A stretch of 64,000 nt of DNA from Planctomyces sp. SH-PL14 (lineage in GTDB: Bacteria; Planctomycetota; Planctomycetia; Planctomycetales; Planctomycetaceae). The DNA is taken from NCBI RefSeq assembly GCF_001610835.1, contig NZ_CP011270.1:7086001-7150000 (forward strand), read 5' to 3'. A model generated the notes under the pieces. It did no database searches. It was not told the DNA's origin and worked only from the letters and a program-made list of their open reading frames with translations. This document shows, one piece after another, positions 2,300-58,859 of this stretch. The position numbers and the translations under genes are program-made. Each line of letters starts with the position of its first letter. Within the stretch, counting starts at the first letter, position 1.

Positions 2300-2335
2300 G
2301 CGCTGTCCGCAACTCAGCGTCATCGGCCCACCGAG

Positions 2336-2660
2336 GTCCAGGGGGCACCCTGGTGGGGAGTGCAGAGGGGCAACGCCCCTTTGCCCGCCGGAGGCCTGGC
2401 CGTCGAGAGATGTCTGAAGGAGCACGTGTCCAAGCGCGGACAACGTGCCGGATGCCCCTTCAACTAACCCGCGGGGACTGCAAAACGAGCGGTGTCGATG
2501 GAATGAGTCCTCAACGCTGGTACCACAATGGGGGCATCCGTTGTGTCCCACGGTTCAGCGAGGAAAATGCCTCCGGGGTCAAGGGGGTGAGACCCCCTTG
2601 ACCCCAAGCTGCCATGGCACGTTGGGTTTGAGCTATCAGAGCCGTGCCGGCAAGCACGCC
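2336..2660 (+). repeat. Dispersed intergenic repeat, copy A
   Basis: First of four copies of a roughly 310-325 bp element. Shared blocks in order are: a hairpin-forming CCAGGGGGCACCCTGG at the left end, TTGCCCGCCGGAGGCC, GTCCAAGCGCGGAC, GCCGGATGCCCC, CATCCGTTGTGT, a GTCAAGGGGG/CCCCCTTGAC hairpin, GCACGTTGGGTTTGAGC and the right end CGTGCCGGCAAG. This copy fills the gap between the convergent hydrolase and hemQ genes, with 36 bp to one stop codon and 2 bp to the other. Short reading frames inside it are not conserved between copies. Confidence 0.9.
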
Positions 2661-2662
2661 GT

Positions 2663-3466
2663 TCAGACACCCGCCTCGAGCTTGAGGTGCTTCAACAGGT
2701 CGCCGGCCGACAGGATGTACCCAATGTAGAACGGACCGAACGCCGCGTACTTCGCCGACGCCTGATCGAACCGCATCGTGTACACAATCTCCTTGATGTG
2801 CTCCGGCGACCGGCTCCAGAGCGTCACCCCCCACTCCCAGTCATCGAAACCGGTCGACGCCGTGATCAGCTGACTCACCTTGCCGGCGAACTTGATCCCC
2901 GAAGTGGCATGCTCCGCCATCAGCGCGGACCGGACACTGAACGGCTCCGTGAACCAGTTCGCGTGCGGATCCCGGATCTTGTTCATCGGGTAAAAACAGA
3001 TCACCGGGAAGTTCGGAAAGTCCGGATACAGCCGCTGCTGATTCATCATCGGCAGCCGCTGCTCATAAGCCCGGACTTTGGCGGCGTAGCTCGGATCCTC
3101 CGCCGAGACCCCGTCCATCTTCAGCCGCTCGCTGTACTGCTCGACCGTCGGGACATACTCGGAGACTTCCGTGATCGACACGAACGAGTACGTCGGCTCG
3201 AGCGCCGCACCGATCGCCGTGGCCCGGATCGCCTGCTTGACCGCGTCGATCTTGAGGGGATCTGGATCGAGCATCATCAGCCCGAAGTCCGCCCGGTGCC
3301 CCGAGACGGCAAACACCTGCAGCCGCTCCGGATTGCCGGCCCGCTCCGGATTCAGGAGCTCTTCGAGCTGGCTCAGGCCCGCCCGCCGAGCCGCGGAGTC
3401 GAGACCGCCCCACACCTGCGGATTCACCCGGTAGTACAGGTGCAGGCAGTGCCACCCCGTCGTCAT
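2663..3466 (-). CDS. hemQ: Coproheme decarboxylase / chlorite dismutase family (HemQ)
   Basis: HemQ converts coproheme III to heme b in the coproporphyrin-dependent heme pathway of the cytoplasm. The C-terminal half carries the family signature IVYTMRFDQASAKYAAFGPF followed by YIGYILSAGDLL. The segments DFPVICFYPMNKIR-like and DDWEWGVTLWS also fit. The start is placed at the ATG of MTTGWHCLHLYYR, giving 267 residues, close to the usual length of about 250. The frame extends upstream without family similarity, and no clear Shine-Dalgarno sequence decides the start. No other heme gene is adjacent. Confidence 0.87.
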   Translation of the reverse strand: MTTGWHCLHLYYRVNPQVWGGLDSAARRAGLSQLEELLNPERAGNPERLQVFAVSGHRADFGLMMLDPDPLKIDAVKQAIRATAIGAALEPTYSFVSITEVSEYVPTVEQYSERLKMDGVSAEDPSYAAKVRAYEQRLPMMNQQRLYPDFPNFPVICFYPMNKIRDPHANWFTEPFSVRSALMAEHATSGIKFAGKVSQLITASTGFDDWEWGVTLWSRSPEHIKEIVYTMRFDQASAKYAAFGPFYIGYILSAGDLLKHLKLEAGV

Positions 3467-8062: not shown

Positions 8063-8202
8063 CACGAGATCCTCTCGTAGCGAGGAAAAGGCAAAATGTT
8101 CACTATCGCATAACACATTCTACGCAGACGCGTCAATTGGTATTGATGGATTCCCGGGATTGGCGCGCGTTCGGTGGCGTGGCAACGTCGCTGGTCGAAC
8201 GG

Positions 8203-8507
8203 GGTCCAGGGGCACCCTGGTGGGGAGTGCAGAGGGGGAACGCCCCTTTGCCCGCCGGAGGCCTGGCCGTCGAGAGATGTCTGAAAGAGTGGGTGTCCAA
8301 GCGCGGACGACGTGTCGTATGCCCCCTCACAACACGCTGGGATTCCAGGGCGACCGGTGAGTTCTCACCGCCGGCATCACAAAGGGGACATCCGTTGTGT
8401 TCCACGGTTCCTCAGGGAAGCGCCTCCGGCGGCAAGGGGTTGCCCCCTTGACCCCGGCTGCCGTAGCACGTTGGGTTTGAGCTGTCAGAGCTGTGCCGGC
8501 AAGGACG
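8203..8507 (+). repeat. Dispersed intergenic repeat, copy B
   Basis: This copy shares the left end (TCCAGGGGCACCCTGG), the TTGCCCGCCGGAGGCC arm, GTCCAAGCGCGGAC, the GCCTCCGGCGGCAAGGGG arm and the right end (GTGCCGGCAAGGACG) with the others. The middle (about 8330-8380) is more diverged, with a GGTGAGTTCTCACC dyad not found in other copies. It lies between the receiver gene's 5' end and the dehydrogenase stop codon, with 33 bp between its right end and that stop. Confidence 0.9.
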
Positions 8508-8540
8508 TCATTCGAAAACTCTGACTTCCTCGCGGCACCG

Positions 8541-20099: not shown

Positions 20100-20122
20100 G
20101 TCTACGGGCATCGGCCGAACCG

Positions 20123-20445
20123 GGTCCAGGGGCACCCTGGTGGGGGATGCAAGGGGGCAAGGCCCTCTTGCCCGCCGGAGGCCTGGCCGTCGAGAGATGT
20201 CTGAAGGTGTTTGTATCCAAGCGCGGACAACGTGCCGGATGCCCCCTCACCAATCCGCGGGGATTGCGAAGCCAGCGGTGTGGCGTAGAGCAGTCCTCAA
20301 CGCCGGTACCACAAGGGGAACATCCGTTGTGTCACACGGTTCCGCGACGAAAATGCCTCCGGCGGCAAGGGGGCGTGGCCCCCTTGACCCCAGGCTGCCG
20401 TGGCACGTTGGGTTTGAGCTATGGACGCCGTGCCGGCAAGGACGC
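20123..20445 (+). repeat. Dispersed intergenic repeat, copy C
   Basis: The clearest copy of the family. The left arm (20149-20183) contains a CAAGGGGG-type hairpin followed by CCCGCCGGAGGCC. The right arm (20355-20391) is GCCTCCGGCGGCAAGGGGG followed by a CCCCCTTG hairpin. The two arms are inverted copies about 170 bp apart with a one-base bulge. The left end forms CCAGGG-GCA-CCCTGG. It lies between the epimerase stop codon and guaA. Confidence 0.92.
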
Positions 20446-20603
20446 GGTTCGAGCCAGCGGGATAAGCGCCTGCGGTTCTCCCGGCCCCGCGGACACTTTA
20501 GCGCCGCGGCCGGGAGCGATATGATCCGGAATTCCCCACATTCCACCGCACCGCTTCCTCGTCGAGGCCGTGCGGCGGTTTCTTTTATTGACCCGGCCTG
20601 TCG

Positions 20604-41868: not shown

Positions 41869-41951
41869 GATGGGGCGGGGATATGAGGGAGGGGAGGGGG
41901 CCAAGCTGGAGAAGGTACGGCGTCGGGTGCCGCGTTGCCAGCCTTGGGACA

Positions 41952-42266
41952 TCGTCCTTGCCGGCACGACTCTGCTCGCTCAAACCCAACGTGCTACGGC
42001 AGCCGGGGTCAAGGGGGGCTCACCCCCTTGCCGCCGGAGACGCTTCCGTGAGGAACCGTGGTCAGCAACGGGCGGCCGCTTTGTGGAGCCGGCGTCGAGG
42101 ATTCGCTGCTCGTTTTGCAATCCCCGCGGGTTGGTGAGGGGGCATCCGGTACGTTGTCCGCGCTTGGACACGCGCTCCTTCAGAAAGAGCGAGACGAGAC
42201 GGGCCTCCGGCGGGCAAGGGGGATTCTCCCCCTTGCATCCCCTGACCAGGGTGCCCCTGGACCCGG
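41952..42266 (-). repeat. Dispersed intergenic repeat, copy D
   Basis: A reverse-orientation copy. Read on the minus strand it begins TCCAGGGGCACCCTGG, has the left arm hairpin CAAGGGGG/CCCCCTTG then CCCGCCGGAGGCC, the GTCCAAGCGCGGAC and GCCGGATGCCCC blocks, and the right arm GCCTCCGGCGGCAAGGGGG plus hairpin. It ends GTGCCGGCAAGGACG. The inner part (about 42070-42110 and 42160-42195) is more diverged. It fills the space between hisA (5' side) and the GCS2 gene stop (16 bp). Confidence 0.9.
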
Positions 42267-42282
42267 TTGGCTGGTGCGATGG

Positions 42283-54927: not shown

Positions 54928-55662
54928 TTACTGGGTCAGCAGGACCGGCATGGCGTAGGCGAGATCACGGAAGGCCGCTTCCAGCTCGGCTGCGTTCTGC
55001 GCGAAATAGTGCCGGCCGCCGGTGATCGTCGCGATCTCGACCATCTCGTTCTGCTGAGCTCCCGGCAGAAAGGTGATGGTGTGGATGACGATTCCCCTCC
55101 CTCTCGCCGTGCGAGCCACTTCGACCGGATCCGATCCCTGGTTCCAGAGTCCATCGGTCATGAGGACGATGGTCTTCTTTGCCAGCGGCTTTGACGTGTC
55201 CTGCTCCAGCATCCGGAGGGCTTCGGTCAACCCGGCGGACATGTTCGTGGCGCCGAGCATCACATTCGACGCCCGGGCCTCGATCTTCTTCTTGAGGCCC
55301 TTCTTCTTTCCGTTGCCGTTCAGCAGCCCGTTGATGACGGTGTCGGTCAGCTCCAGGTCTCGGGCAGTCACCGCCGAGGTCACTTTTGTCAGAAGGTATT
55401 CGACCGAGTTCCGCGTGATCTCGGAGGACCAGGTGACGATGCCGACGCGAGGCTGGAAGTTCGCCCGGCCGATGATCTCGTCGAAGGCGTCCACCGCCTT
55501 CATCAGCGCGGCCCAGCGGCTCAGCGTCGCGTGGGGTGGCAATGTGATTCCCACCGGATAGCCGGGGATACCGGGCGGATACTTCCAGTCGACGCCCGAC
55601 AGGTCGAAGGCCATTGAGTGCGACCGGTCGAGGGCCAGGATGATGTCCTGATCAAACTGCCG
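54928..55662 (-). pseudogene. von Willebrand factor A domain gene, 5' end lost
   Basis: The vWA core is complete: the metal-site motif is DRSHS in IILALDRSHSMAFDLSG, the threonine is in GATNMSAGLTEALRM, and the second aspartate is in IVLMTDGLWNQGSDP. The part N-terminal to the core that related proteins carry (a TadG-like membrane segment) is missing. Beyond about 55662 the frame runs into DNA antisense to a winged-helix-like remnant, and the residues there are unlike any vWA protein. I read this as a gene cut by recombination. If still translated from an internal start, a free vWA domain would be made. Type IVc (Tad) pilus proteins are the nearest relatives by motif, but this is uncertain. 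Confidence 0.65.
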
Positions 55663-55893
55663 ATGGTTCGGACGCTTCTCTTTTCCAGATGCGTCCACCT
55701 CCGCAGGCTGTCCGAGGAGCAGCGAACGACCGTCGATCGTCTGGCGGGTTCTGGCCTGGTGAGCCTCGAGAACTCGCAAGGCCGCCTGACCGAGCGGGGC
55801 TATCGCCTGGCGTTCGCCGAGCCGTGGTACGCGGGGGGCGGTGTGGCGTTCTTCTGGTGCGAACAGATGGTCTTCGAGCCGAGGCCCGTTTAG
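55663..55893 (+). pseudogene. Winged-helix-like small protein, 5'-truncated copy
   Basis: A 76-residue remnant. VRTLLFSRCVHLRRLSEEQR matches the copy at 58692 (LRTLLFSRFVHLGWLTDAER) in protein and DNA. It continues LVSLENSQGRLTERGYRLAF, the wing of the family, then an aromatic segment. The first residues of the open frame come from DNA antisense to the vWA gene, so the true N-terminus is lost. The junction at about 55660-55665 is the breakpoint described in the findings. Confidence 0.5.
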
Positions 55894-58691: not shown

Positions 58692-58859
58692 ATGAGCGAG
58701 GCTGCCATGCTTTTTGAGCGTTGGTCTCACGTCTTGGTTCTCGAAGTTGACCGTCCGTTGCTTCGTACGCTTCTCTTTTCGAGGTTCGTGCACCTCGGCT
58801 GGCTGACGGACGCGGAGCGAGGGGCAGGGGCGGGGGCCCGCGAGCGACGTCCGATCTGA
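58692..58859 (+). pseudogene. Winged-helix-like small protein, 3'-truncated copy
   Basis: A 55-residue remnant. After MSEAAMLFERWSHVL it reads LRTLLFSRFVHLGWLTDAER, matching the copy at 55663 at DNA level as well (the shared run CGCTTCTCTTTTC and surrounding bases). It then enters a GAGGGGCAGGGGCGGGGG tract and stops, so the second helix and wing are gone. Copy 55663 lacks the N-terminal part and this one the C-terminal part. Confidence 0.5.

What the first reader, a model, noticed from the sequence alone, without database searches (positions are those of the whole stretch)
20123..20445. Family of four roughly 310-325 bp intergenic repeats with inverted-repeat arms
Copies at 2336-2660, 8203-8507, 20123-20445 and 41952-42266 (reverse) share at least eight blocks in the same order. 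Each has a left arm (CCCCCTTGCCCGCCGGAGGC-like) and a right arm (GCCTCCGGCGGCAAGGGGG) that are inverted copies with one bulged base. Each arm also carries its own CAAGGGGG/CCCCCTTG hairpin, and the left end forms CCAGGG-GCA-CCCTGG. It has no coding capacity conserved among copies. It could be a MITE-like element, a REP-type element or a structured RNA. Four in 64 kb implies many in the genome.
Basis: seen in the sequence. Interest (0 to 1): 0.6.

Follow-up and report, generated by a model that had tools for sequence, protein, structure and literature searches.

The report
Freely recombining family of ~1,200 intergenic repeats
One bacterial chromosome carries about 1,200 copies of a 316-base hairpin-bearing intergenic repeat, descended from an old transposon-like element, whose copies are so thoroughly shuffled with one another that they behave like a sexual population inside a single genome.

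Summary
The four window copies belong to a family of about 1,150-1,200 copies (143 per Mb, 4% of sampled DNA) in an 8.44-Mb Planctomycetota chromosome. No match was found in 58 nearest relatives, and only short chance-like stretches in a class-wide sample. Copies are almost all intergenic, hug stop codons and avoid the region just before start codons. They show no orientation bias.

About 60 places genome-wide keep an outer terminal inverted repeat (GGGTGCATTCGC...). All those checked border this repeat. Intact units are about 405-450 bp and keep a decayed ~9-bp target duplication (permutation p<0.0005). So it began as a MITE, now old and apparently immobile: there are no near-identical copies, and low-GC islands are almost empty of it.

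The inner 316-bp core is nevertheless well kept. Its variants, including unique indels, are at linkage equilibrium beyond ~40 bp, regardless of distance or orientation. Simulated whole-element copying cannot give this; simulated gene conversion does. Hairpins are nearly invariant; only hairpin B covaries, with wobble pairs on one strand. Best reading: a dead MITE whose core is maintained by ectopic gene conversion plus constraint on its hairpins. A structured RNA or a RAYT-driven REPIN is not supported.

The parts
20119..20447 (+). focal copy, conserved core (core positions 1-316 plus small indels)
   Evidence: profile hit 20117-20454, 374 bits; consensus of 203 copies
20126..20140 (+). hairpin A, CCAGGG-GCA-CCCTGG (core 8-22), >=99.5% paired in 203 copies
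   Evidence: sequence; pair counts
20150..20170 (+). hairpin B (core 32-52), the only covarying helix; G.T wobbles on the + strand
   Evidence: pair 35-49 GC 90/AT 88/GT 21; 186 GT against 4 AC in 7 pairs
20172..20182 (+). left arm CCGCCGGAGGC (core 54-64), pairs with right arm; preceded by one bulged C
   Evidence: 98.9% paired in 203 copies
20355..20365 (+). right arm GCCTCCGGCGG (core 225-235)
20366..20386 (+). hairpin C CAAGGGGG...CCCCCTTG (core 236-256); in other copies the insertion target of IS4-family elements
2332..2665 (+). copy 1 (between a beta-lactamase-fold gene and a convergent chlorite-dismutase/HemQ-like gene)
8196..8515 (+). copy 2 (left neighbour on the - strand; zinc dehydrogenase gene on the - strand whose stop lies 26 nt after it)
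41948..42269 (-). copy 4 (14 nt from the stop of a GCS2-family gene)

Best explanation
An old, now immobile MITE family whose core is maintained in place by gene conversion. Shown: ~1,200 intergenic copies of a 316-bp core in one Planctomycetota chromosome. Surviving complete units are ~405-450 bp, bounded by inverted GGGTGCATTCGC ends and ~9-bp target duplications, so the unit was spread by a cut-and-paste-type transposase. Shown: low-GC islands are nearly empty, no two sampled copies exceed 92.3% identity, and the outer arms and target duplications have largely decayed, so insertion is ancient and spreading has apparently stopped. Shown: core variants are at linkage equilibrium beyond ~40 bp between copies anywhere on the chromosome and in either orientation. 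Inferred: non-reciprocal recombination (ectopic gene conversion) keeps copying core segments between resident copies, so each core is a patchwork and mutations are homogenised. Conversion stops near the ends of homology, and the outer arms rot. Inferred: the near-invariant hairpins A, arm and C and the covarying hairpin B reflect purifying selection or conversion bias on a structure formed by one strand. A plausible host role is a REP/BIME-like gene-end element (bidirectional 3'-end, nucleoid or gyrase site), but that role is not shown.
For: Copy number and density. Intergenic placement hugging stops. TIRs adjoin the core in 22/22 and 30/30 loci. TSD ~9 bp, observed max z 5.6 against a 95% permutation maximum of 3.3. 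Graded decay of right arms: 82/227 copies score >=11 against 6/227 in the control. Core identity does not track arm survival (Spearman 0.01 and 0.04). Private or rare variants only 1.2% per copy against decayed arms. Islands: 1.0 copies per 20 kb in low-GC bins against 3.2 elsewhere, Poisson p 8e-9. Mean r2 0.17-0.24 at <=3 bp falling to 0.006 (about 1/N) beyond 40 bp, repeated in random halves. Multi-nucleotide and unique indel alleles independent with all four gametes. No effect of distance or orientation on identity. Simulation: whole-element copying gives flat r2 0.25-0.38, conversion reproduces the decay. Hairpin constraint: diversity 0.046-0.058 at the left end and right arm against 0.164 mean, helix pairing 99%.
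Against: No conversion event was observed directly; there is no second strain or congeneric genome to compare. Homologous recombination between 84%-identical 316-bp copies is expected to be inefficient where mismatch repair works. Long shared tracts between pairs exceed the block-shuffled null only modestly (102 against 33-64 at >=80 nt), so recent tracts are not conspicuous. Most copies show no recognisable outer arm, so part of the family could have been dispersed as the core alone. The left core edge is abrupt rather than graded, which conversion alone does not explain.
Confidence: 0.62

Rival explanations
1. Burst with template switching: the shuffling happened during an ancient amplification (recombination among replicating elements or their intermediates), and the copies have been frozen since.
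For: Linkage equilibrium alone does not date the recombination. Narrow identity range 78-92% looks like a single episode.
Against: Arms and target duplications have decayed far more than the cores, and core quality is unrelated to arm survival; a frozen burst should decay evenly. Hairpins are invariant while neighbouring sites vary.
Confidence: 0.2
2. Independent functional copies: each copy evolves alone under the same selection (for example a gene-end element), so variants look unlinked because they recur.
For: Strong site-specific constraint and hairpin B covariation. Gene-end placement.
Against: Shared unique events are also unlinked: a 12-nt loop insertion and an 11-nt indel, multi-base blocks, and two-state G/C or T/A transversion sites with the other two bases at 1-3%. 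Recurrence cannot easily make these.
Confidence: 0.08
3. REPIN-like element moved as single-stranded DNA by a RAYT (Y1/HUH transposase).
For: Paired inverted hairpins, extragenic, hundreds of copies, G.T wobbles on one strand only. One clear Y1 gene in the genome.
Against: The Y1 gene is flanked by its own unrelated inverted repeats; the nearest family copy is ~1.2 kb away, at background density. The unit has 9-bp target duplications and terminal inverted repeats, typical of DDE transposases. No recent copies.
Confidence: 0.05
4. Structured non-coding RNA family or 3'-UTR RNA.
For: One strand-specific covarying hairpin; fold z -4.3 to -5.
Against: Both strands fold equally well relative to shuffles. 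The interior has no covariation despite near-independent samples. Orientation to genes is unbiased, 75 against 73 in tandem pairs. No Rfam hit.
Confidence: 0.05

Closest known systems
Bacterial MITEs (Correia/NEMIS, ERIC/IRU, RUP, YPAL/RU-2; reviewed in PMC2229807)
   Same: short non-coding unit with terminal inverted repeats and target duplications, intergenic, high copy, hairpin forming
   Different: about 1,200 copies (4% of the sampled DNA), 405-450 bp, TIRs and duplications decayed while the inner core is kept, copies fully recombined; no autonomous partner seen
REP / BIME / REPIN elements (PMC2817692, PMC3116915, PMC3733652)
   Same: extragenic, near stop codons, paired inverted hairpins with a bulge, IS insertion targets, hundreds of copies
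   Different: core ten times longer than a REP, no GTAG/CGTC-tagged hairpin, no RAYT flanked by the repeat, DDE-type ends; Higgins et al. 1988 (cited in PMC3733652) asked whether REPs evolve by gene conversion, which this family can test
Gene conversion among Alu SINEs (PMC8230782, abstract only read)
   Same: dispersed non-coding repeats exchanging segments
   Different: eukaryotic retroelements with known subfamily structure (own knowledge); here no subfamily structure remains beyond ~40 bp
REP sequences as IS targets (PMC1525189, abstract only read)
   Same: insertion sequences home on the palindrome; here 9 of 10 IS4-type loci sit in or beside the element
   Different: the target is hairpin C of this longer element

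Membership tests
MITE | non-coding unit under ~600 bp | tested here: met
   units 405-451 bp, intergenic
MITE | terminal inverted repeats | tested here: met
   GGTGCATTCGC-type ends in inverted orientation; 63 places genome-wide, control 0, every locus checked adjoins the core; recognisable in only a minority of copies
MITE | target-site duplication | tested here: met
   ~9 bp, decayed, among 17 units with both ends; permutation p<0.0005; invisible if the core edges are used instead
MITE | autonomous transposon with the same ends | tested here: inconclusive
   none among TIR loci in 2 Mb or the 30 best genome-wide; the rest not read
REP/REPIN | 20-40 nt palindrome tagged GTAG or CGTC at the hairpin foot | tested here: not met
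   no such tag beside hairpins A, B or C in the consensus
REP/REPIN | cognate RAYT gene flanked by the repeat | tested here: not met
   two Y1_Tnp loci only; the strong one has different flanking repeats, no copy at the other
REP/REPIN | extragenic, high copy, inverted hairpin doublet | tested here: met
structured RNA family | covariation across the fold | tested here: inconclusive
   only hairpin B covaries; other helices invariant, interior unsupported
structured RNA family | known Rfam family | tested here: not met
   only a tRNA in the window
structured RNA family | discrete transcript | not testable with these tools
   no expression data
gene-converting repeat family | linkage decays with distance within the element across copies | tested here: met
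gene-converting repeat family | observed patch transfer between strains | not testable with these tools
   no congeneric genome held

The most novel reading that the evidence does not exclude
A bacterial chromosome sustains a panmictic intragenomic population: ~1,200 fixed, formerly mobile copies whose cores are continuously homogenised and reshuffled by ectopic gene conversion at near free recombination, with hairpins under selection, so that a dead transposon persists as a host-maintained gene-end element.
Probability: 0.45. Interest if true: 0.8.

Novelty: new variant of a known kind. Interest (0 to 1): 0.62.

Why it matters
Whether bacterial extragenic repeats persist by transposition, selection or gene conversion has been asked since Higgins et al. 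1988 (cited in PMC3733652 and PMC3116915). This family gives hundreds of nearly independent copies in one chromosome, with a built-in clock (decayed TIRs and target duplications) beside a maintained core. The three forces can therefore be separated. If conversion is ongoing, recombination between dispersed 84%-identical short repeats must be far more frequent in this organism than is usually assumed, with consequences for genome stability and for how functional non-coding elements are kept.

Tried and rejected
Target duplications at the core edges: none; found only at the outer TIRs. Insertion into split terminators: flank complementarity equals shuffles. RAYT as mobiliser: rejected. Regular spacing as a nucleoid ruler: not general; high clustering is explained by empty islands. 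Strand bias: 332 against 358. Local conversion or orientation bias: none. Hairpin D (core 266-306): pairs not supported. Relatives: none in 58 nearest genomes, only 20-60 nt low-score matches (E >= 1e-4) in 20 other class members. Plasmids: none. An 18-nt genome contigs pattern gave scattered hits in unrelated phyla, taken as chance. The z-scores printed are mis-scaled and are not used; only observed against expected fractions are.

Full report
1. Observation. The four copies are real and at the stated places, within about 10 nt. The window is 7,086,001-7,150,000 of an 8,442,773-bp single-contig genome. The genome has 66 matches to PSD1 (PF07587), a domain named for planctomycetes (own knowledge) and absent from 14 control genomes. 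No other genome of its genus is held.

2. Size of the family. I read five 400-kb blocks (2.0 Mb) of the chromosome and searched them with a profile built from 30 copies. That gives 286 non-overlapping copies, 203 of them full length, covering 4.1% of the DNA. Extrapolation gives 1,207 by density and 1,141 from a 20-nt end motif (690 genome matches, control 0). The searcher's own first look listed 1,196-1,201 candidates. The full query has no match in 58 nearest relatives. In a 397-genome sample of the class, 20 genomes other than its own give only 20-60 nt matches at E >= 1e-4.

3. Position. By a simple codon-based gene finder, 284 of 286 copies are intergenic. Orientation relative to genes is unbiased (75 against 73 in tandem pairs). 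Both ends sit within a few to ~30 nt of stop codons, but usually more than 60 nt from start codons. Convergent gene pairs with little residual space are the most occupied: 22 of 47 with under 20 nt left. Gene ends from this finder are approximate.

4. Origin. The core edges show no target duplication. Beyond them, a minority of copies keep GGTGCATTCGCYGRWTGGTGGTCG about 11 nt to the left, and its inverted partner about 30 nt to the right. All 22 such sites in 2 Mb and all 30 best sites of the genome (partly the same loci) adjoin a family copy. Most intact units are 405-451 bp. Among 17 units with both ends, flanks match at a ~9-bp offset: mean identity 45% against 26% expected, maximum z 5.6 against a 95% permutation maximum of 3.3, 0 of 2,000 permutations as high. 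One unit keeps 9 of 9 and another 8 of 9. This is the signature of a transposed MITE whose duplications have mostly decayed.

5. Age and immobility. No pair among 203 copies exceeds 92.3% identity; median 83.7%. 20-kb bins with GC below 0.632 hold 1.0 copies on average against 3.2 elsewhere (p 8e-9), although gene density is similar. The strongly atypical bins (GC 0.59-0.625) are almost all empty. Those bins look like acquired islands; the family has not colonised them.

6. Recombination. Among 73 common variable sites, mean r2 is 0.24 at adjacent sites, 0.18 at up to 3 nt, 0.04 at 6-20 nt, 0.012 at up to 40 nt and 0.006 beyond, which is close to the unlinked value 1/N. Random halves agree. 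Thirteen multi-base blocks are pairwise independent apart from immediate neighbours, and identity does not depend on genomic distance or relative orientation. Unique events, such as a 12-nt loop insertion and an 11-nt indel, occur in all four combinations at expected frequencies. In simulation, whole-element copying gives r2 of 0.25-0.38 at every distance, whereas segmental conversion gives the observed decay. The copies are mosaics drawn from one shared pool.

7. Maintenance in place. Rare variants amount to only 1.2% per copy, although outer arms and duplications beside the same cores have decayed. Core quality is unrelated to arm survival. Right arms show every degree of decay (82 of 227 above a level reached by 6 of 227 controls). 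The simplest account is continuing conversion of resident cores; a frozen ancient burst should have decayed evenly. This step is inferred, not observed.

8. Structure. Hairpins A, C and the arm helix are 99% paired and nearly invariant, so they give no covariation test. Hairpin B covaries (pair 35-49: GC 90, AT 88, GT 21; 99% paired against 79% expected), with 186 G.T and 4 A.C cells over seven pairs. It is therefore the + strand, as RNA or single-stranded DNA, whose hairpin is kept. The A35 allele, in nearly half the copies, would mismatch C253 in the alternative long-stem fold, so the local hairpin is the conserved form. The interior fold is not supported.

9. IS targeting. Nine of ten IS4-family loci in 2 Mb lie in or beside a copy, several at the same place in hairpin C. 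This parallels REP sequences as IS targets (PMC1525189).

10. Verdict. The family is a MITE by the tests that could be run, REP-like in location, and not a REPIN or known RNA. Its unusual feature is near-free recombination among ~1,200 dispersed copies. Higgins et al. 1988 asked whether REP sequences evolve by gene conversion (cited in PMC3733652 and PMC3116915); this family makes that directly testable.

Noticed in passing
genome blocks 2.0 Mb (e.g. L057 9612-11125, L071, L085, L089): IS4-family transposase genes are almost exclusively inserted in or beside this repeat, several at the same place inside hairpin C (9 of 10 loci).
   Followed up: partly
G000:C1 220-340 kb, 7,140-7,200 kb, 4,320-4,400 kb, parts of 2.64-2.82 Mb: Low-GC, compositionally atypical regions nearly empty of the repeat, probably acquired islands.
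   Followed up: partly
genome blocks: Several other short palindromic repeat families: AGGCGAGCGGGGGGCGTCAGCCCCCTGAT, ACACCAGCCCGAAGCGCCAGCGAGGG, CGGGAGGGCGAAGCTCCTGCTGAGCCGC, AGTCCCGTCAGGGACG; some are nested inside family copies.
   Followed up: no
one family copy in the 2.0 Mb sample: The 12-nt hairpin-B loop insertion occurs once as its reverse complement (CCCAGAAAAACAACACAGG), as if the loop had flipped between its own stem arms.
   Followed up: no
G000:C1 5.6-6.0 Mb: This block holds an excess of truncated copies (20 of 43 unpaired right-truncated ones).
   Followed up: no
L150 1366-2070: Y1/RAYT-like gene flanked by its own inverted repeats containing GCCTGGGGC-GCCCCAGG hairpins, unrelated to this family.
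   Followed up: partly
G000:C1 5,961,360-5,963,320: GGGACGTGGAAGGACCTGACGG recurs at spacings that are multiples of ~276 bp, probably a repeat-protein gene.
   Followed up: no
window 55660-55725 and 58755-58820: Two 66-nt stretches 79% alike, apparently paralogous coding segments.
   Followed up: no
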